Source: Mycolicibacterium nivoides | GTDB lineage: Bacteria > Actinomycetota > Actinomycetes > Mycobacteriales > Mycobacteriaceae | Assembly (NCBI RefSeq): GCF_003855255.1 | Contig: NZ_CP034072.1 | Location: forward strand, 1,240,001 to 1,304,000 | Length of the DNA stretch: 64,000 nt | Reading direction: 5' to 3' | Shown: piece after piece, positions 1-29,171 of the stretch | Numbering within the stretch: the stretch's first letter is position 1 | How the letters are laid out: every line of letters starts with the position of its first letter | The notes under the pieces: model-generated | Seen by the model: the letters and a program-made list of their open reading frames with translations, nothing else | Told to the model about the DNA's origin: nothing | Database searches by the model: none | Program-made: the position numbers and the translations under genes

Positions 1-19666
<19,666 letters not shown>

Positions 19667-19670
<4 letters not shown>

Positions 19671-22600
19671 CTGCCGACGCCAACCGGCGATTGTTGTCGA
19701 TGGATCTCGACGACGACGATGACGTCGAGGAACTCGACGGGTGGGGTAACCGGGCAGCCTTGAATGAGGTGGTCCCGGTGTCGGCGTCGATCCCGGTGCT
19801 GTTCGACGCGCAGGTGGCTCGTCATCCGGACGCGGTGGCAGTCAGCCTCGGTGCCAGTTCGTTGACCTATCGGGAACTCGACGCGGCTGCGAATCGGTTG
19901 GCGCACTTGCTGGTCGAGTGGGGAGCAGGTCCCGGGCTGCGGGTGGCGTTGTTGTTCCCACGTTCGGTCGAGGCTGTGGTGGCGATCATGGGGGTGCTGA
20001 AGACCGGTGCGGCGTATGTGCCGATCGATCCTTCGGTGCCCGATGCGCGCTTGGATTTCGTCCTAACCGACTCGGCGCCGATCGCTGTGGTCACCACCGC
20101 TGATCTGGTGGGTCGGTTGGATGGGCGTGGGTTGACGGTGATCGATGTCGACGACTCCGCCGCGGTCGGCCGGCCGAGCACCCCACCGCTGGTCGAACCA
20201 ACTGGCGATGATGTTGCGTACCTGATCTACACGTCGGGGACGACGGGTGTGCCCAAGGGTGTGGCGATTCCGCATCGGAATGTGGCGCGGTTGTTGGATG
20301 CGATCGATCGTGATGTGGATTTGTCGGCGGGTCAGGTGTGGACGCAGTTCCACTCGTATGCGTTCGATTTCTCGGTGTGGGAGATTTTCGGTGCGCTGCT
20401 GCACGGTGGCCGGTTGGTGGTGGTGCCCGAATCGGTGACGCGCTCGGCCGATGAGTTCCACGCGTTGTTGGTCGCCGAACGGGTCAGTGTGCTCAGTCAA
20501 ACACCGGCAGCGTTCTATGCGTTGGCCGCGGTCGACGCGGCCCGGCCTGACCACCAGCTCTCACTCGAACTCGTGGTGTTCGGCGGGGAGGCGCTGGAAC
20601 CGCAGCGGCTTTCACCATGGTTGGACCGGCACGCGGTGATGCCGCGGTTGATCAATATGTACGGGATTACCGAGACGACGGTGCATGCCTCGTTCCGTGA
20701 GATCAGCGCCGCTGATGTGGGCAATGTGGTCAGTCCGATCGGTGTGCCGTTGGCGGATCTGGCGTTTTTCGTACTGGACGGTTGGTTGCGTCCGGTGCCC
20801 GCCGGGGTGGTTGGCGAGTTGTACGTCGCCGGTGCCGGTTTGGGCTACGGGTATGTCGGTCGGCCGGGATTGAGTGCGTCGCGATTCACAGCGTGTCCGT
20901 TCGGGTCGCCGGGGATGCGGATGTATCGCACCGGGGACCTGGTGTCGTGGCGCGCGGACGGGGAACTGCAGTATCTGGGCCGTGCCGATGAGCAGGTCAA
21001 GATCCGTGGCTATCGCATCGAATTGGGTGAGATCCAGTCTGCGCTGATGGCGTTGGACGGTGTCGAGCAGGCGGTGGTGATCGCCCGTGAGGACCGGCCC
21101 GGGGACAAGCGGCTGGTCGGTTATGTCACCGGGACCGCCGATCCTGCTGTGTTGCGTGCGGTGCTGGGGGAGACGCTGCCGCCGTATATGGTGCCCGCGG
21201 CGGTGGTGGCTATCGATGCGTTGCCGTTGACGGTCAACGGCAAGCTCGACAAAAAGGCCTTGCCTGCACCGGAATACCAGCATGTCGATGGCTACCGGGC
21301 TCCGAGCACGCCCACCGAGGAGATCCTGGCCGGCATCTACGCCCAGATCCTCGGCCTGGACCGCGTCGGCGTCGACGAATCATTCTTCGATCTCGGCGGT
21401 GATTCCTTGCAGGCCATGCGCCTGGTCGCCGCCCTCAATCGGACTCTGGGCACCGGCCTCGAAGAGCGCGTCCTGTTCGACGCCCCAACGGTCGCCCAGC
21501 TGATGCTCTGCATCGGTGACGACGAAGGCCGGCATCAACCGTTGCTGGCCGCGGAACGGCCCGCGGTGATGCCGCTGTCGTTTGCGCAGAGCAGGTTGTG
21601 GTTCATCGACCAATTGAACGGGCCTTCACCGGTTTACAACCTGGCGGCGGGTTTGCGCTTGGACGGACCACTTGATGTCGAGGCCCTCGGCGCGGCGTTC
21701 GGGGACCTCTTGGATCGACACGAGAGCCTGCGCACGTTGTTCCCGACGGTTGACGGGACGCCTCAGCAACTGATTGTTCCCGCTGAGCTGACCGAATTCG
21801 GCTGGGAGGTGGTTGATGCCGTCGGATGGCCGGCCGGCAGGTTGGAGCAGGCCGTCGAGGACGCGGCGCGTCACAGCTTCGACCTCGCTGCCGAGATCCC
21901 GCTGCGGGCGAAGGTTTTCCGGGTAGCCGAGGATGAGCATGTGCTGGTGGCGGTGGTGCATCACATCGCCGCCGACGGTTGGTCGATCACTCCGCTGGTG
22001 GCCGATCTGGGGGTGGCCTATGCGAGCCGGCGTGAAGGGCAGGCGCCGGGCTGGGAGCCGTTGGCGGTCCAGTACGCGGACTACACGTTGTGGCAGCGCG
22101 CCCAGCTGGGTGATCTGGAGGAGAGCGACAGCCGCATCTCCCAGCAGCTGAGGTTCTGGGCGGACGCACTCGGCGGGATGCCCGAACGCCTGGCATTGCC
22201 GACCGATCGTCCCTATCCCTTGGTGGCTGACCAGAATGGCGACCGAGTCGATGTGGAATGGCCCGCCGATCTGCAGCAACAGGTGGCTCGCCTGGCTCGC
22301 GAACACAACGCGACCAAATTCATGGTGATTCAAGCGGCGCTGCTGACTCTGCTGTCGAAGCTCAGCTCGAGTTCGGATGTGGCGGTGGGCTTCCCGATCG
22401 CCGGGCGCCGTGACCCTGCCCTCGACGAGCTGATCGGGTTCTTCGTCAACACGTTGGTGCTCCGGGTCGATCTGGCCGGAGACCCGAGTGTTGCCGAGGT
22501 GCTGGCTCAAGTTCGGGAACGCAGTCTCGGTGCGTTCGAGCACCAGGACGTGCCGTTCGAGGTGCTTGTCGAGCGGCTCAACCCGACCCGGTCGCTGACC

Positions 22601-25600
22601 CACCACCCACTGGTGCAGGTGATGTTGGCCTGGCAGAACGTTCCCGGTCAGACGGGCGAAGACGGCGGCGGGGTGTCGCTGGGGGATCTGCAGGTCACTC
22701 AGTTGCCGCTGGACACCCACACCGCGCGGATGGACCTGTCGTGGTCGTTGGCCGAACGCTGGACGGAAACCGGTGAGGCCGCGGGAATTTCCGGCACTGT
22801 CGAGTTCCGTACCGATGTGTTCGACGCCGGCAGCATCGAAGCCCTCGTCGATCGGTTGCGGCGGGTCCTCGAGGCGATGGCCGCCGATTCCACCCTGCGA
22901 CTGTCGGCGATCGATGTGCTCGACGCCGATGAGCGGGCACGTCTGGACACGGTGGGCAATCTGGCGACGCTGACCCGTCCGACCCCCGGTCCGGTGTCGA
23001 TTTCGGTTCTGTTCGATGCTCAGGTGATCCGTGATCCTGGTGCGGTGGCCGTCAGTTTCGACGGAAGCCACATCACGTACGGGGATCTCGATCGGGCCGC
23101 GAATCGGTTGGCGCACCTGCTCGTCGAGCAGGGTGTTGGTCCGGGCCAGCGGGTGGCGTTGCTGTTCTCGCGGTCGGTCGAGGCGATCGTCGCGATCTTC
23201 GCGGTGCTCAAAACCGGGGCGGCATACGTGCCGATCGATCCCGCGGTGCCCGATTCCCGAATGGAGTTCATCCTCAGCGATTCCACGCCGCTGGCGGCGA
23301 TCACCACCACGGATCTGGCCGACCGGCTGGCCGGGCGCGCATTGAGGGTGATCGCCGTCGACGATGCCGCGGTGGCCGGCCAACCCGATACAGCCCTGCC
23401 GGGGCCGGGTCCGGACGACATCGCGTATCTGATCTACACCTCGGGCACCACGGGTGTGCCGAAAGGTGTGGCGATCCCGCACCACAACGTGACTCGATTG
23501 CTGCAGGCCCTGGACGCCGATCTGGAGTTGTCGGCGGATCAAGTGTGGACGCAGAGTCATTCGCTGGCCTTCGATTTCTCGGTGTGGGAGATTTTCGGCG
23601 CACTGCTGCACGGTGGCCGGCTGGTGGTGGTGTCCGATTCGGTGGCACGGTCGCCCGAAGAGTTCCACGCCTTGCTGGTCGCCGAGCGGGTCAGTGTGTT
23701 GAGTCAGACGCCGTCGGCGTTCTATGCGCTGCAAGCCGCGGACGAGCTCTCAGCGGGGGCCGGTTCTGAGCTCGAGCTTGAGTTGGTCGTATTCGGCGGT
23801 GAAGCACTGGACCCGACTCGGCTGGCGGAGTGGTTCCAGGACCATCCGGTGTTGCCGCGGTTGATCAACATGTACGGGATCACCGAGACCACGGTGCACG
23901 CATCGTTCCGGGAGATCACCGAGCTCGATGCGGAGGTCGCGGTCAGTCCGATCGGTGTGCCGCTGAAGCACCTGGCCTTTGTCGTGCTCGATCGCTGGTT
24001 GCGTCCCGTGCCGGTCGGGGTGGTGGGCGAGTTGTATGTGGCCGGTGCGGGTTTGGGCTACGGGTATGTGGGTCGGCCGGGATTGAGTGCGTCGCGATTC
24101 ACAGCGTGTCCGTTCGGGTCGCCGGGGATGCGGATGTATCGCACCGGGGACCTGGTGTCGTGGCGCGCGGACGGGGAACTGCAGTATCTGGGCCGTGCCG
24201 ATGAGCAGGTCAAGATCCGTGGCTATCGCATCGAATTGGGTGAGATCCAGTCTGCGCTGATGGCGTTGGACGGTGTCGAGCAGGCGGTGGTGATCGCCCG
24301 TGAGGACCGGCCCGGGGACAAGCGGCTGGTCGGTTATGTCACCGGGACCGCCGATCCTGCTGTGTTGCGTGCCGCGCTGGCGGAGAAGCTGCCGCCCTAC
24401 ATGGTCCCGACCGCTGTGGTGGAGATCGAGGCCCTGCCGTTGACGGTCAACGGAAAACTCGATATTCGAGCGTTGCCGGCCCCGGAATACCAGGACATCG
24501 ATCGTTATCGTGCTCCGGCCACTGGTGTCGAGGAGCTTCTGGCCGGCATCTACGCCCAAGTCCTCGGCCTGGACCGCGTCGGCGTCGACGAATCATTCTT
24601 CGACCTTGGTGGCGACAGCATTTCGGCCATTCAGGTGATCTGGCGCGCCCATAGTGCCGGTCTGACCGGGCGCCCACGCGACATCTTCGTCCAGCAGACG
24701 GTGGCCCGGTTGGCGCGGGTGGTCAGTATGGCCAACAACGCCGGCGGCGTGATCGACGAGGGTCTCGGTCCGGTGGTCGCGACCCCGATCATGCGGTGGC
24801 TGAAGGGCCTGGAGCGTGCCGACGGCCCGATCGACGAGTTCAATCAGACGGTGGTGCTGCAGGCACCCGCCGGTGCATCCGAGGACGACGTCGTAATCCT
24901 GTTGCAGGCCTTGCTGGCACGGCATGGCATGCTCCGATTGCGTGCCGAGGACGACGGCACCGGCGCATGGTCGCTGACAGTGCCCGACCCGGACGCGGTG
25001 GATGCGCGCGAGCATCTGCTCACCGTCGACCTGTTGACGGAAGACGCGCTGGCAGTGGCACGGTCGCGGTTGAATCCCGCCGCCGGGGTGATGTTGAGCG
25101 CGTTGTGGAGTTCTGCCACGGGGCAACTGGCGTTGGTCGCCCACCATATGGCTGTCGACGGAGTGTCGTGGCGAATTGTGCTGGAGGACCTCAACATCGC
25201 CTGGACCCAGCATCGCGGCGAGCAGCCGGTGCTGCTGCCGCCGACCGGGTCGTCGTTCAAACGATGGGCGGAGCTGCTGGCTGAGTACGCGCACCACCCC
25301 GACGTGGTCGGCCGGGCGGAGGCGTGGCGGCAGGTGGCCTCGATCCCACCTGCATTGCCGGCGCCGCGGCCCGCCGAGGATACGTTCGCCACCGCCGGAT
25401 ACCTGTCGGAGTTCCTGGATGCCGAGACCACCCACATGCTGCTGGGTGATGTGCCTGCGGCATTTCACGCCGGGGTGCAAGAGATCCTGTTGATCGCGTT
25501 CGCACTGGCGTGGGCCCAGTATCTGGGGACGGGCGGCGCTCCGATCGCCATCGATGTGGAGGGCCACGGGCGCCAGGAGGACTTGGCAAATCTGGGCGCA

Positions 25601-27823
25601 CCCGACGACCCAGAGGTCGACCTATCGCGCACGGTGGGGTGGTTCACCGCCAAGTACCCGGTATCGCTGGCAGTCGGTGGGCTGCGCTGGACGCAGGTGG
25701 TGGCAGGCGATGCGGCGCTCGGCGCGGTCATCAAGGACGCCAAAGAGCAGCTTCGAACCCTGCCCGACGGTCTGACCTACGGACTGCTGCGCTACCTCAA
25801 CCCCGACGTGGATCTGGCCGGATCCGATCCGGTGATCGGGTTCAACTATCTCGGGCGGCTGGGTTCCCCGGCGGCGTACGCGTCCGGTGACGTGTGGCGT
25901 TTCAGTCAGGACGGCCTGTCGATGACCGGTGCGGCCGGCGCGATGCCGATTGCGCTGGCGCACTCCGTGGAGCTCAATGCGGTCACCATCGACACCGACA
26001 GCGGCCCGCACCTGAATGCCACCTGGACGTGGGCGCCCACCGCACTGGATCGTACGGCTGTCACCCGGATCAGCCGGTTGTGGTTCGACGCCCTGGCGGG
26101 GATCTGTGCCCATGTCAGGCGGGGCGGGGGCGGATTGACGCCGTCGGACATCGCGCCGGCAAGGCTGAGCCAGCACCAGATCGATGCGCTGCACAGCGAA
26201 TTCCCCATCGCCGACGTGCTTCTCCTGACGCCGTTGCAGCAGGGACTGCTCTACCACGCCGGCATCGCGAATTCCTCTGGCGACGACGTCTATGCGGTGC
26301 AGCTGGACCTGGCATTGAGCGGTCCGCTCGACGTACACCGGCTGCGCGATGCCGTGCAGACCGTGGTGAGTCGGCATCCGCATCTGGCTGCCCGCTTCTG
26401 CCCGCAGTTCGAGCAACCCGTGCAGGTGATCCCCGCTGATCCGGTGACGCCGTGGCGGTATATCGAGTTGGACGCCAACGGCATTGGCGTCGACCAGCAG
26501 ATCGAGCAGATCTGCGCCGCCGAACGTGGCGCAGTGTGCGACCTCGAGAACCAACCTGCCTTCCGGACCGCCCTCATCCGCACTGCCGAAGACCGGCACC
26601 GGTTCGTGCTGACCAACCATCACATCGTGCTCGACGGATGGTCGATGCCGATCCTGATGCAGGAGATCTTCGCCGGCTACCAGGGGCTGCGGCTGCCCGC
26701 GGCCTCCCCGTACCGCAGCTTCGTGACGTGGCTGTCCGAACGTGATCACCATGCCGCCCATGCGGTGTGGCGTGAGGTGCTGGCCGGTTTCGACACTCCG
26801 ATTCTCGTGGGACCGCCGCAGAAGCTGCGGTTCGGGGAACGTTGTGTCGGCTCGTACCGGGTGCCCGCCAAGACCACGCGGGCCCTTACGAAACTCGCGC
26901 GCGCGCATCACACCACCGTGAACGTCGTCTTGCAGGGGGCTTGGGCTCTCCTGCTCAGCTCGCTGACCGGCCACCACGACGTCGCCTTCGGAACCGTCGT
27001 CTCGGGTAGGCCACCGGAGGTGGACGGTGCGGATTCGATGGTCGGCCTGCTGATCAACACGGTTCCGGTGCGGGCTACCTTCACCCCGGAAACCACCACG
27101 GCCGATCTGCTGGACCAGCTGCAAAGTGCCCACAACGACACACTCGATCATCAGCACGTGGCGCTCAGCGACATTCACCGCATGACCGGCCAGGACAGCC
27201 TCTTCGACACCGTCTTCGTGTACGAGAACTATCCGACCGATACCGGAACACCACCGGGCGGCGAGGGTTTGGCCGTCACCGGTTTCAGCAGCCGCGACTT
27301 CTACCACTACCCGATCGCGGTGCAAGCCGGGCCCGGTCGCGAGTTGGAGCTGCGGGTCCAATACGACACCGAGGTATTCGACGGCGAAACCATAGAAGCG
27401 CTGATGGAGCGGTTCAAGAAGGTGTTGGTGGGGATGACGGCCCATCCGGGTCGCCGCGTGTCATCCCTGGATCTCCTGTCGAAGACCGCGTGCCTGGACG
27501 GGTGGGGGCGCAAGGCGGTATCGGCTCGGCCGGACACCGGCGTGGTGCCCGCATCCGAAGTCGGTGAGGCCGACGGCCCCTATCGCCCCCCGGCCACCTT
27601 GGTCGAGCAGATCCTCGCCAGCATCTACGCCGAGGTGCTGGGCGTCGACCGGGTGGACGTGGAGGAGTCATTCTTCGATGCGGGCGGCGATTCGATTTCG
27701 GCGATGCGTGCCATCGCCGCGATCAACGGAGCCCTCGACGTCGAACTCACGATGCTCGCGCTGTTCGACGCGCCGTCCGTACGCAGCTTGGCTCAGCAGT
27801 TGGCAAACGCACCGGTTCAATGA
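19667..27823 (+). CDS. Non-ribosomal peptide synthetase, subunit 2
   Basis: A 2718-residue NRPS that begins with an adenylation domain. Order: A (40-530), T (545-615), C (625-1085), A (1110-1605), T (1620-1685), E (1695-2165), C (2175-2600), T (2640-2710). GTG at 19667 is the start: it overlaps the TGA of subunit 1 as GTGA and has a GGAGAGG Shine-Dalgarno ten bases upstream. The N-terminal residues TADANRRLL match the linker that joins C to A inside the other modules, so the gene boundary falls within a module. The acidic run [11 protein letters not shown] lies in this linker. The last unit is C-T: the linker after the C domain passes straight into a carrier domain ([13 protein letters not shown]) with no A domain. 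No thioesterase, reductase or terminal condensation-release domain follows; the protein stops 25-30 residues after the carrier. Both A domains are of the [11 protein letters not shown] type, unlike the five in subunit 1. Confidence 0.97.
20858..21159 (+). repeat. 302-bp perfect repeat, copy 1 (adenylation domain 6)
   Basis: Base-identical to 24071-24372, checked base by base. It covers the A-domain C-terminal subdomain, including the YRTGDLV and [11 protein letters not shown] motifs. One mismatch at 20857 separates it from further matching sequence on the left. Identity without any silent change, inside genes where other modules differ at most third positions, points to recent gene conversion or duplication. 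Confidence 0.95.
21521..26170 (+). other. NRPS module 7: C-A-T-E
   Basis: The LCL-type condensation domain has HHIAADGW near 21960. The A domain has the same pocket code as module 6 (D F W S V G M V H), so a second threonine-like residue is expected, here turned to the D form by the E domain ([11 protein letters not shown] near 25140). A 302-bp block of this A domain is base-identical to module 6. Confidence 0.83.
24071..24372 (+). repeat. 302-bp perfect repeat, copy 2 (adenylation domain 7)
   Basis: Second copy of the block at 20858-21159, offset 3213 bp, in the same subdomain of the next A domain. The sequences part immediately on the right (position 24373 C against 21160 G). Confidence 0.95.
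26171..27823 (+). other. NRPS module 8: terminal C-T without A domain
   Basis: A condensation domain of the post-epimerase type ([11 protein letters not shown] near 26610) is followed by about 40 linker residues and a carrier domain. The linker begins like a normal C-A linker (SLDLLS, LDGWG) and resumes like a normal A-T linker ([15 protein letters not shown]), as if an A domain had been cut out. There is no release domain. Confidence 0.85.
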
Positions 27824-27862: not shown

Positions 27863-28537
27863 TCACCACATATAGGGCACCAGGCGATAACGCGCCTTCT
27901 GCGCGTACTCGCGGTAGCCGTCCAACTCTTCGACGAGCAGCTTTTCCTCATCCCGAATGCGGACGACGAGAACGATGAGGCCCGGTATGACGGGCAGGAG
28001 CCCCCAGTAGGAGCCGAGCGCGAGGGGGAAGCCGATGATCGTCAGCACGTTGCCGGTGTACATGGGGTGACGAACCAGCCCATAGAGGCCGGTGGAGGCG
28101 AGCTTCTGGCCTGACTCCACCTGCACGGTGGAGGCCGCGAAGCTGTTCTGGATGACCACCAGGCTCGTGACACCCAGTCCGAGGGCCACCAGAACGTCAC
28201 CGGCAACGCAGATCGCCGCCGGTACCGACGACCAGTCGAAGCGGTGGTCCAGTGCGCTGACCACCACCATCGCCGCCAGCGACAGGTACCAGCCGGCGAT
28301 GAGGACCTTCTGCACCGTTCGGGTTTCCGCCGCCGGTCCGGCGTGCTTGCGCCGTTGGTGTGCCTCGGGGTTTGTCCGTTGCAAGAAGATACTGGGAATC
28401 CACGTCGACAGGGCGAACACGACGAGAAAAGCCCAGGCTTGCCAGAAGTCGAGTGTGCCGGCGAGTGAGAACAGCACCAAGCCGAACACGATGAGTTCAA
28501 CAAGCCCGAATCCGACTACTCTCGCAACGGCTTTCAC
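27863..28537 (-). CDS. Isoprenylcysteine carboxyl methyltransferase (ICMT) family membrane protein
   Basis: A membrane protein of about 224 residues with four to five hydrophobic segments. The C-terminal part has the family signature: LYGLVRHPMYTGN, then a hydrophobic hairpin, then RIRDEEKLL and a Y-rich end. ICMT/PEMT-type enzymes use S-adenosylmethionine to methylate membrane-associated substrates; the substrate here is unknown. I chose GTG 28537 because AGGAGG lies directly upstream, although only three bases away. A TTG at 28582 would add 15 residues (RPPAVCAATDDRR region) but has no ribosome site. The gene converges on the NRPS and has its own promoter region in 28583-28807, so it is not in the NRPS operon. 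A tailoring role is possible but unsupported. Confidence 0.75.
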   Translation of the reverse strand: MKAVARVVGFGLVELIVFGLVLFSLAGTLDFWQAWAFLVVFALSTWIPSIFLQRTNPEAHQRRKHAGPAAETRTVQKVLIAGWYLSLAAMVVVSALDHRFDWSSVPAAICVAGDVLVALGLGVTSLVVIQNSFAASTVQVESGQKLASTGLYGLVRHPMYTGNVLTIIGFPLALGSYWGLLPVIPGLIVLVVRIRDEEKLLVEELDGYREYAQKARYRLVPYMW

Positions 28538-28807
28538 GATCCTCCTGTCGTCCGTCGCGGCACAGACTGCCGGCGGGCGCAACCCAGCGCACGGCTCAAC
28601 CTACCGTCGGTCACCTGCAAGATGGGTGCAATTGACGGACAAGTCATGAGGGTGAAGTGGCGGTCACCGCACGGGTTCCGGACACGAGAGTCGTGACCGG
28701 GAAATCACCCGACTGCGCGTACGACCGGGATTGTGGCGGCGGGAGCGACAGCGGACCCGAAGCGTTCTGGCAGGGGTACGCCGAGTCTGCGGTGATAGTC
28801 CTGACTC

Positions 28808-29094: not shown

Positions 29095-29171
29095 TGGTGC
29101 CCTCGGTGAGATTCGAACTCACACTGTACGGGTTTTGAATCCGTTTCCTCTGCCAGTTGGGATACGAGGGC
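29095..29171 (-). tRNA. tRNA with CAA anticodon (tRNA-Leu by anticodon), CCA encoded
   Basis: On the minus strand the 7-bp acceptor stem GCCCTCG/CGAGGGC is perfect. The T arm is GTGAG-TTCGAAT-CTCAC and the D loop has AACTGGCA. The anticodon loop TTCAAAA (29133-29139) gives anticodon CAA, reading UUG. The anticodon stem has one A-C mismatch at its inner pair. The variable region is only five bases (ACAGT), a class I fold, whereas normal leucine tRNAs have a long variable arm. The encoded CCA is at 29095-29097. Confidence 0.88.

What the first reader, a model, noticed from the sequence alone, without database searches (positions are those of the whole stretch)
26171..27823. Assembly line ends in C-T with no adenylation domain and no release domain
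The last unit has a complete C domain and carrier but no A domain, and no thioesterase, reductase or terminal C follows. The linker looks like a normal C-A linker joined to a normal A-T linker, as if the A domain was excised. Chain release and loading of the last carrier must happen in trans, or the final C transfers the peptide to an external acceptor such as an amine, sugar lipid or another synthetase.
Basis: partly seen in the sequence, partly recalled or inferred. Interest (0 to 1): 0.72.

Follow-up and report, generated by a model that had tools for sequence, protein, structure and literature searches.

The report
Extra C-T couplet ends lipopeptide synthetase
A mycobacterial enzyme that builds a surface lipid-peptide ends in a pair of domains that seems to add no building block; the pair recurs in many mycobacteria, often beside a methyl-transfer enzyme, and probably works as an off-loading step.

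Summary
In detail: the synthetase gene (window 19667-27823) ends T-E-C-T, with no A domain between the last C and T and no TE or reductase after it. It is not a local deletion: the same terminus was found in 82 of 396 genomes sampled from the genus, with the carrier serine kept in 78 of 78 couplets scanned. The whole line has 8 A, 9 C, 9 T and 4 E domains and matches the GL8P locus of M. abscessus, whose published product is an octapeptide, so the last C-T adds no residue and T9 need not be loaded in trans. Printed GL8P formulas hold one CH2 more than a free acid; other printed data place it at the C-terminus, i.e. a methyl ester. An ICMT-family methyltransferase gene lies within 2 kb of 74 of 91 such termini (window 27866-28537, minus). 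Terminal C domains form a sub-group of D-donor C domains with their own signature. Best reading: C9-T9 is a non-elongating release couplet that takes the D-allo-Thr chain after E8, followed by methyl-ester formation. The transfer step, the off-loading enzyme and the ICMT substrate are inferred. Known analogues: the fungal GliP couplet and the non-elongating D-donor C of chitinimine.

The parts
3..19670 (+). 3' part of NRPS1 (open frame from genome 1235272, left of the window; start codon not fixed): from within C2 to E6-C7; ends in C7, whose A domain starts the next gene
19667..27823 (+). NRPS2, 2718 aa: A7-T7-C8-A8-T8-E8-C9-T9
23015..24514 (+). A8, residue code DFWSVGMVH(K) (threonine; meaning of the code recalled)
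24500..24727 (+). T8 carrier
24737..26032 (+). E8 epimerization domain (HHMAVDGV), predicted to give D-allo-Thr
26219..27514 (+). C9, terminal condensation domain of D-donor ancestry; HHIVLDG at 26618-26638; terminal-type signature RDFYHYP at 27293-27313 and Q at 27359-27361
27515..27574 (+). linker where an A domain would normally sit
27575..27805 (+). T9 terminal carrier; pantetheine serine at 27692-27694
27866..28537 (-). ICMT/PEMT-family integral membrane methyltransferase, convergent with NRPS2 (ORF listing gives a longer start at 28582)

Best explanation
The locus makes a GL8P-type glycosylated lipo-octapeptide, predicted acyl-D-aThr-Ala-D-Phe-Ile-Tyr-D-Leu-Thr-D-aThr. The ninth C and T add no residue. 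After E8 sets the D configuration on the chain held by T8, C9 (a repurposed D-donor C domain) accepts only the D-peptidyl chain and passes it on to T9, so that the chain leaves from T9 rather than from the epimerizing carrier T8. Off-loading then yields the peptide acid (enzyme unidentified; C9 itself or a trans hydrolase), and the neighbouring ICMT-family membrane methyltransferase makes the C-terminal methyl ester. Shown: architecture, its conservation, the matching published octapeptide, one extra CH2 in its printed formula. Inferred: T8-to-T9 transfer, stereochemical gating, who off-loads, and the substrate of the ICMT.
For: 8 A domains and 4 E domains at positions 1, 3, 6, 8, as in MAB_4691c/MAB_4690c (24327 and 8151 bp; NRPS2 here is 8157 bp) whose NMR product is T-A-F-I-Y(OMe)-L-T-T. 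The eight A codes equal those of G220 except for one position in A3 and one in A7; G220 carries the published start primer of MAB_4690c at its own NRPS2 start. MbtH and a divergent P450 flank as in M. abscessus. Printed formulas of GL8Pa and GL8Pb need one CH2 beyond Tyr-OMe, N-stearoyl and the stated sugars; the paper's a-ions fit C18 acyl, GL8Pa has unmodified rhamnose, and two free Thr side chains are lost unmodified, which points to the Thr8 carboxyl. 75 distinct terminal C sequences fall inside the D-donor clade; all 75 have D/Y in the RDxYHYP stretch and 73 also Q by pattern; of 28 elongating D-donor C domains 25 have E/N and 0 D/Y; of 113 L-donor 0. Terminal T domains form one clade, 78 of 78, support 0.78. 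Every couplet on a frame that reaches further back follows an E domain (split hits in L048 and L070). ICMT within 2 kb of 74 of 91 termini (67, 6, 1); orientation differs (52 convergent, 7 co-directional pairs). In G387 and G189 the couplet is followed by a gene that starts with a D-donor C domain, as expected if T9 carries the D-chain. In print, the C domain after the terminal E of chitinimine groups with D-donor C domains, keeps HHxxxDG and is not thought to form a peptide bond (PMC13291983, passages).
Against: The GL8P paper's Fig. 1 legend speaks of an annotated Te domain; the MAB_4690c sequence itself was not inspected. 14 of 91 termini have no ICMT in the stretches fetched, although 12 of these 14 keep the D/Y signature, so signature and ICMT are not tightly coupled; G216 and G113 have E-C-T without signature or ICMT. 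20 of 80 named ICMT loci have no NRPS end within 2 kb (some stop at contig ends) and ICMT homologues occur in 335 of 396 genomes. In G387 the extra C and A-T lie in different frames, so that module may be broken; its C could also take the chain directly from T8-E8. I made no search for carrier-to-carrier transfer by C domains; the one case met is by a type II TE (PMC8748450, abstract).
Confidence: 0.62

Rival explanations
1. C9 itself off-loads the chain (hydrolysis or transfer to methanol/water) and T9 only docks or positions; no chain ever sits on T9.
For: C9 has terminal-specific residues next to the catalytic His and at the position aligned with FscG M2917, one of five residues named as able to touch the acceptor side chain. 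No other release enzyme was recognised among the cluster genes given to Pfam or by the thioesterase search.
Against: The T9 serine is kept in 78 of 78 couplets, as expected if T9 is pantetheinylated and used; the D-donor C that follows the couplet in G387 and G189 suggests a chain on T9, with the caveat that the G387 module is split between frames.
Confidence: 0.2
2. T9 is loaded in trans (by A8, A7 or a distant A domain) and a ninth residue is added, then kept or trimmed off.
For: The A-less C-T of SyrE is supplied in trans by SyrB1 (PMC8949500, passage). A7 and A8 share one code. In G216 and G113 the terminal C lacks the signature, so trans loading may apply there.
Against: Published product of the same locus type has eight residues; no free NRPS-grade A domain near; residues on the acceptor side differ from elongating C domains.
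Confidence: 0.08
3. The ICMT-family enzyme methylates the tyrosine phenol (GL8P has para-O-methyl Tyr), not the C-terminal carboxyl.
For: GL8P has O-methyl Tyr; members of this superfamily that methylate phenolic lipids are known (recalled). The extra CH2 would then need another enzyme.
Against: The ICMT also adjoins a four-module synthetase with no Tyr-like code (L139: DVWSVAMVHK, Thr, Phe-like, Thr) and other lines whose codes differ; the cluster has two other methyltransferase genes.
Confidence: 0.15
4. A local deletion removed module 9's A domain and the cluster is decaying.
For: Linker looks like a C-A linker fused to an A-T linker.
Against: Same junction in 82 of 396 genomes, motifs intact, frames open.
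Confidence: 0.01

Closest known systems
GL8P locus of M. abscessus (MAB_4689c-4705c; MAB_4690c/4691c), PMC11978893
   Same: Bimodular plus hexamodular NRPS of nearly the same lengths, E at 1, 3, 6, 8, MbtH and P450 neighbours, predicted T-A-F-I-Y-L-T-T
   Different: The sections and passages read do not describe an A-less C-T end, a C-terminal methyl ester or an ICMT; a Te domain is said to be annotated. The paper calls the locus restricted to the M. abscessus complex and close relatives; here the same A-code set is read in a genome whose nearest relatives named to species are M. septicum, M. setense and M. peregrinum
Chitinimine synthetase end (ChtnC, E then non-elongating D-donor C, then TE), PMC13291983
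   Same: Terminal E followed by a D-donor C with intact HHxxxDG that is not thought to form a peptide bond (passages)
   Different: Released by a fused TE as a macrolactam; not mycobacterial; whether a T follows that C was not seen in the passages
ICMT gene between PKS and NRPS genes of M. fortunisiensis and a Mycolicibacterium sp., PMC13291983
   Same: An ICMT-family gene beside a mycobacterial NRPS is already noted in print; M. fortunisiensis is L130 here, whose NRPS ends E-C-T
   Different: No role for it, and no C-T end, in the passages seen
Fungal terminal C-T couplet (GliP, A1-T1-C1-A2-T2-C2-T3)
   Same: An apparently extra C and T, without A, at the end of the synthetase, acting in off-loading (review PMC11610984, passage; PMC9030297, passage; primary paper recalled, not held)
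   Different: Fungal, makes a cyclic dipeptide; here bacterial, after an E domain, with a linear ester inferred and an ICMT neighbour
SyrE C-T-TE supplied in trans by SyrB1
   Same: Last module lacks A
   Different: SyrE has a TE and a dedicated A-T partner; none found here
GPL synthetase Mps2 (C-A-T-R)
   Same: Mycobacterial lipopeptide locus with MmpL, Gap-like and glycosyltransferase genes
   Different: Mps2-like genes of this same genome end in a reductase domain (PF07993), not C-T
Serine-containing GPL of M. xenopi (Ser-Ser-Phe-D-allo-Thr, PMC7261415 passage; C-terminal O-methyl recalled)
   Same: Ends in D-allo-Thr; L141 and L142 hold four-module lines X-X-Phe-like-Thr ending E-C-T
   Different: Gene cluster of M. 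xenopi not identified here; no ICMT beside L141/L142 within about 4 kb

Membership tests
GL8P-type locus | Two tandem NRPS genes, six plus two modules, E at 1, 3, 6, 8 | tested here: met
   published features
GL8P-type locus | A-domain codes as in a GL8P-type relative | tested here: met
   relative tied to MAB_4690c by its start primer; one position differs in A3 and one in A7
GL8P-type locus | Product is the glycosylated octapeptide | not testable with these tools
   needs lipid analysis of this organism
Terminal C-T release couplet (GliP-like) | C-T after the last complete module, no A, no TE | tested here: met
Terminal C-T release couplet (GliP-like) | Catalytic His and carrier Ser intact and conserved | tested here: met
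   HHxxxDG in 75 and GGxS in 78 of 78; on the three misses
Terminal C-T release couplet (GliP-like) | Couplet required for product release | not testable with these tools
   needs mutants or in vitro assay
Terminal C-T release couplet (GliP-like) | Common descent with the fungal couplet | not tested
   C9 falls among mycobacterial D-donor C domains, which argues for separate origin; no fungal sequences compared
Trans-loaded A-less module (SyrE type) | Partner A or A-T gene in the cluster | tested here: not met
ICMT methyltransferase family | Profile match and RHPxYxGN ... EE ... GYxxY motifs | tested here: met
   PF04140 37 bits and PF04191 44 bits, over cut-off; motifs; 4a2n E 7.8e-11; Foldseek best 5v7p, prob 0.99 but E 0.11, none at E<=0.001; 52 bits against a cut-off of 160 for NCBIfam isopcys_mtase
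ICMT methyltransferase family | Carboxyl methylation of a lipidated peptide | not testable with these tools
   inferred from formula arithmetic

The most novel reading that the evidence does not exclude
Mycobacteria evolved a release device in which a D-selective condensation domain, with no acceptor amine, moves the finished D-ended peptide from one carrier to another (thioester to thioester), acting as a stereochemical gate after a terminal epimerase, and hands it to a membrane methyltransferase that makes a C-terminal methyl ester. The rule would be: lines ending in a D residue need E-C-T, lines ending in an L residue end C-A-T, as next to the ICMT in L089 and L092.
Probability: 0.33. Interest if true: 0.72.

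Novelty: new variant of a known kind. Interest (0 to 1): 0.57.

Why it matters
It would explain how a widespread class of mycobacterial surface lipopeptides is released without a thioesterase or reductase, correct residue counting when such lines are read (nine C-T stations, eight residues), predict C-terminal methyl esters from sequence, and offer sequence marks (RDxYHYP, VQY) that separate releasing from elongating condensation domains.

Tried and rejected
Rejected: decayed module; trans A domain near the cluster; nearby thioesterase (L003 has an acyl-CoA thioesterase-like gene about 40 kb upstream, not pursued). The lone 'A' hits near many loci score 25-94 bits, apart from two NRPS pieces in L070, and look like acyl-CoA or fatty-acyl ligases; not classified further. 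Q at C9 position 381 was first taken for loss of a universal acceptor residue, but the aligned residue is S in PvdL and I in McyB and N in FscG, so only the contrast within mycobacteria is claimed. Fortuitine was considered as product and dropped: its only hit in the paper library was off topic and its recalled sequence does not fit the codes. L5P (C-terminal methyl ester, passage) supports the chemistry in mycobacteria only. A family-wide search found full-length couplet matches only in the own genus; the two matching genomes of other genera matched the T part alone (20 of 301 genomes with any match at E<=1e-22, 12 candidates scored each). The first automatic residue codes misread one position of Thr-type domains; correct this. 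On checking I withdrew a claim that an ICMT beside an NRPS is not in print: PMC13291983 mentions it.

Full report
What is there. The window lies in a 6.9-Mb single-contig genome. Nearest named relatives by the methyltransferase gene are M. septicum (96%), Mycobacterium sp. URHD0025, M. setense, Mycobacterium sp. DL99 and M. peregrinum (the tool may leave out the nearest records), so it is probably of the M. fortuitum group (inference). NRPS1 (open frame genome 1235272-1259670) and NRPS2 (window 19667-27823) overlap by four bases. Together they read C1-A1-T1-E1, C2-A2-T2, C3-A3-T3-E3, C4-A4-T4, C5-A5-T5, C6-A6-T6-E6, C7 | A7-T7, C8-A8-T8-E8, C9-T9. Pfam finds no thioesterase or reductase in NRPS2. 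An MbtH gene precedes NRPS1. Upstream lie two MmpL genes, a gene weakly like sulfotransferases and one weakly like WS/DGAT acyltransferases (both below cut-off), three glycosyltransferases, two methyltransferases, two Gap-like (SfLAP) genes and a divergent P450.

Is it conserved. A query of the end of C9, the linker and T9 gave 91 places in 82 of 396 genus genomes, own genome included, at E<=1e-30 (rows counted). In the 30 loci returned the match runs to, or within about 20 residues of, the end of the frame. A scan of 100 loci with HMMs made from this cluster found termini ...A-T-E-C-T again and again in lines of different length. In 69 frames ending E-C-T with an A domain, the last A code is DFWSVGMVH in 59 and DYWSVGMVH in 4 (Thr type; code meaning recalled), DFWSVGLVH in 1, other in 3 (L055, L079, L110), and 2 are cut; G065 (L143), outside that set, also differs. 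The carrier serine was found in 78 of 78 and HHxxxDG in 75 of 78 couplets (the misses).

The neighbour. The gene after the couplet (window 27866-28537, minus) belongs to the ICMT/PEMT superfamily. It adjoined the couplet in 20 of 20 fetched loci and the window, co-directional in two of them, G309 and G220. Over all 91 termini, 67 have a listed match within 2 kb (the list was cut), 6 more appear by HMM (G188, G340, G172, G102, G114, G293) and G381: 74 of 91. Two more (G387, G305 first copy) are 3-5 kb away, G336 breaks at a contig end, and 14 have none in the stretches fetched. In 7 of those 14 (G318, G117, G379, G094, G227, G122, G107) the genome has another couplet with an ICMT beside it. From the other side, of 80 named ICMT loci 55 abut an NRPS ending E-C-T, 3 a C-T on a short frame, 2 a C-A-T, and 20 no NRPS end. 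ICMT homologues as such are common, in 335 of 396 genomes, so presence alone says little; the adjacency is the evidence.

What the product is. Leclercq et al. 2025 (PMC11978893; abstract, passages, sections 8 and 12 read) describe M. abscessus MAB_4691c (24327 bp, six modules) and MAB_4690c (8151 bp, two modules), D residues predicted at 1, 3, 6, 8, and an NMR-proved octapeptide T-A-F-I-Y(OMe)-L-T-T with N-stearoyl and rhamnose on Thr8. The window pair has the same plan and, but for one position in A3 and one in A7, the same codes as G220, whose NRPS2 starts with the published primer of MAB_4690c. Eight A domains, eight residues: C9-T9 adds none. From the printed formulas I computed that a free acid would be C70H114N8O18 (GL8Pa) and C89H148N8O24 (GL8Pb), while the paper prints C71H116N8O18 and C90H150N8O24. 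With the acyl chain put at C18 by a-ions, an unmodified rhamnose in GL8Pa and two unmodified Thr side chains, the extra CH2 belongs most likely at the Thr8 carboxyl. The main text does not say so: 'methyl ester' occurs once, for fatty acids, and 'carboxyl' and 'OMe' not at all. In a mab_1638 (gplR1) mutant MAB_4689c ('uncharacterized protein'), MAB_4690c and MAB_4691c fall together (log2 -3.1, -2.9, -3.4; PMC12455991, passages). That MAB_4689c is the ICMT is inferred from position in relatives, not read.

What C9 is. In a tree of C domains the 75 distinct terminal ones sit inside the D-donor clade with 7 elongating D-donor C domains among them (MRCA support 0.918). Terminal C domains have D and Y in RDxYHYP (75 of 75) where elongating D-donor ones have E and N (25 of 28; 1 E/T, 2 not caught by the pattern), and Q instead of E in the VQY motif in 73 of 75 by pattern and 75 of 75 by alignment column. 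Position 332 (V in 99%) aligns with FscG M2917, one of five residues described as able to touch the acceptor side chain; that paper found no correlation of these residues with acceptor identity (PMC8097023, passages). In newly fetched termini the signature is present also where no ICMT adjoins, and absent in G216 and G113.

How it most likely works. E domains leave a D/L mixture; a D-donor C domain downstream normally does the selecting (general knowledge). A line that ends in a D residue and has no TE would lack that selection. C9 supplies it and T9 receives the chain. Two natural variants fit: in L089 and L092 the ICMT adjoins a line ending C-A-T without E, and in G387 and G189 the couplet is followed by a D-donor C gene, with the ICMT after the extra module in G387. 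Both are few; in G387 the extra C and A-T lie in different frames, and in G189 the contig ends inside that gene. The off-loading enzyme is unknown.

Closest known. The fungal GliP couplet C-T3, acting in cyclisation (review PMC11610984, passage), and the D-donor C after the last E of chitinimine, not thought to form a bond (PMC13291983, passages), are the nearest working analogues; descent was not tested. The idea of a non-elongating D-donor C after a terminal E is therefore already in print; new here are the TE-less C-T form, its breadth in mycobacteria, the signature and the ICMT link to a methyl ester. SyrE is the nearest case of a missing A but has a partner and a TE. That an ICMT gene lies beside mycobacterial NRPS genes is mentioned in PMC13291983; I saw no paper giving it a role, in the listings (12 of 305 listed), which cover open-licence papers only.

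Verdict. A real, conserved, probably functional release couplet in a known locus type; a new variant of a known kind.

Noticed in passing
G000:C1 25293-25908 and 32200-33096: An NRPS-type A domain appears split and out of order: profile positions 1-302 at 32.2 kb and 301-409 at 25.3 kb followed by a thioesterase piece; perhaps a rearranged siderophore NRPS.
   Followed up: no
L006 4874-12691 (-) and L008 5632-13365 (+): Two separate Mps2-like synthetases, at 5.86 Mb and 0.24 Mb, both ending in a reductase domain.
   Followed up: partly
L001 6325-8807 and 8861-18028: The cluster carries a weakly sulfotransferase-like gene, a weakly acyltransferase-like gene and three glycosyltransferases; the product may be sulfated or more heavily glycosylated than published GL8P.
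   Followed up: no
L141 and L142 (G122, G107): Four-module lines with codes DVWSVAMVHK, DVWSVAMVHK, Phe-like, Thr, ending E-C-T; the plan resembles the M. xenopi Ser-Ser-Phe-allo-Thr lipopeptide.
   Followed up: partly
L163 and L169 (G387, G189): Lines where E-C-T is followed by a separate gene starting with a D-donor C domain and an A domain; split between frames in L163, cut by the contig end in L169.
   Followed up: partly
L174 and L175 (G216, G113): E-C-T termini without the terminal C signature and without an ICMT nearby; possibly truly trans-loaded.
   Followed up: no
L160, L162, L165: A second NRPS with a starter-type C domain begins shortly after the E-C-T end, so two lipopeptide lines may sit in tandem.
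   Followed up: partly
L086, L102, L115, L116, L123, L138: ICMT paralogues in overlapping or adjoining pairs, with no NRPS domain hit in the locus.
   Followed up: no
window 29098-29171 (-): A tRNA gene between the methyltransferase and an ANTAR regulator plus branched-chain-type ABC transporter genes; the protein-coding flank is shared by 10 of 21 loci compared.
   Followed up: no
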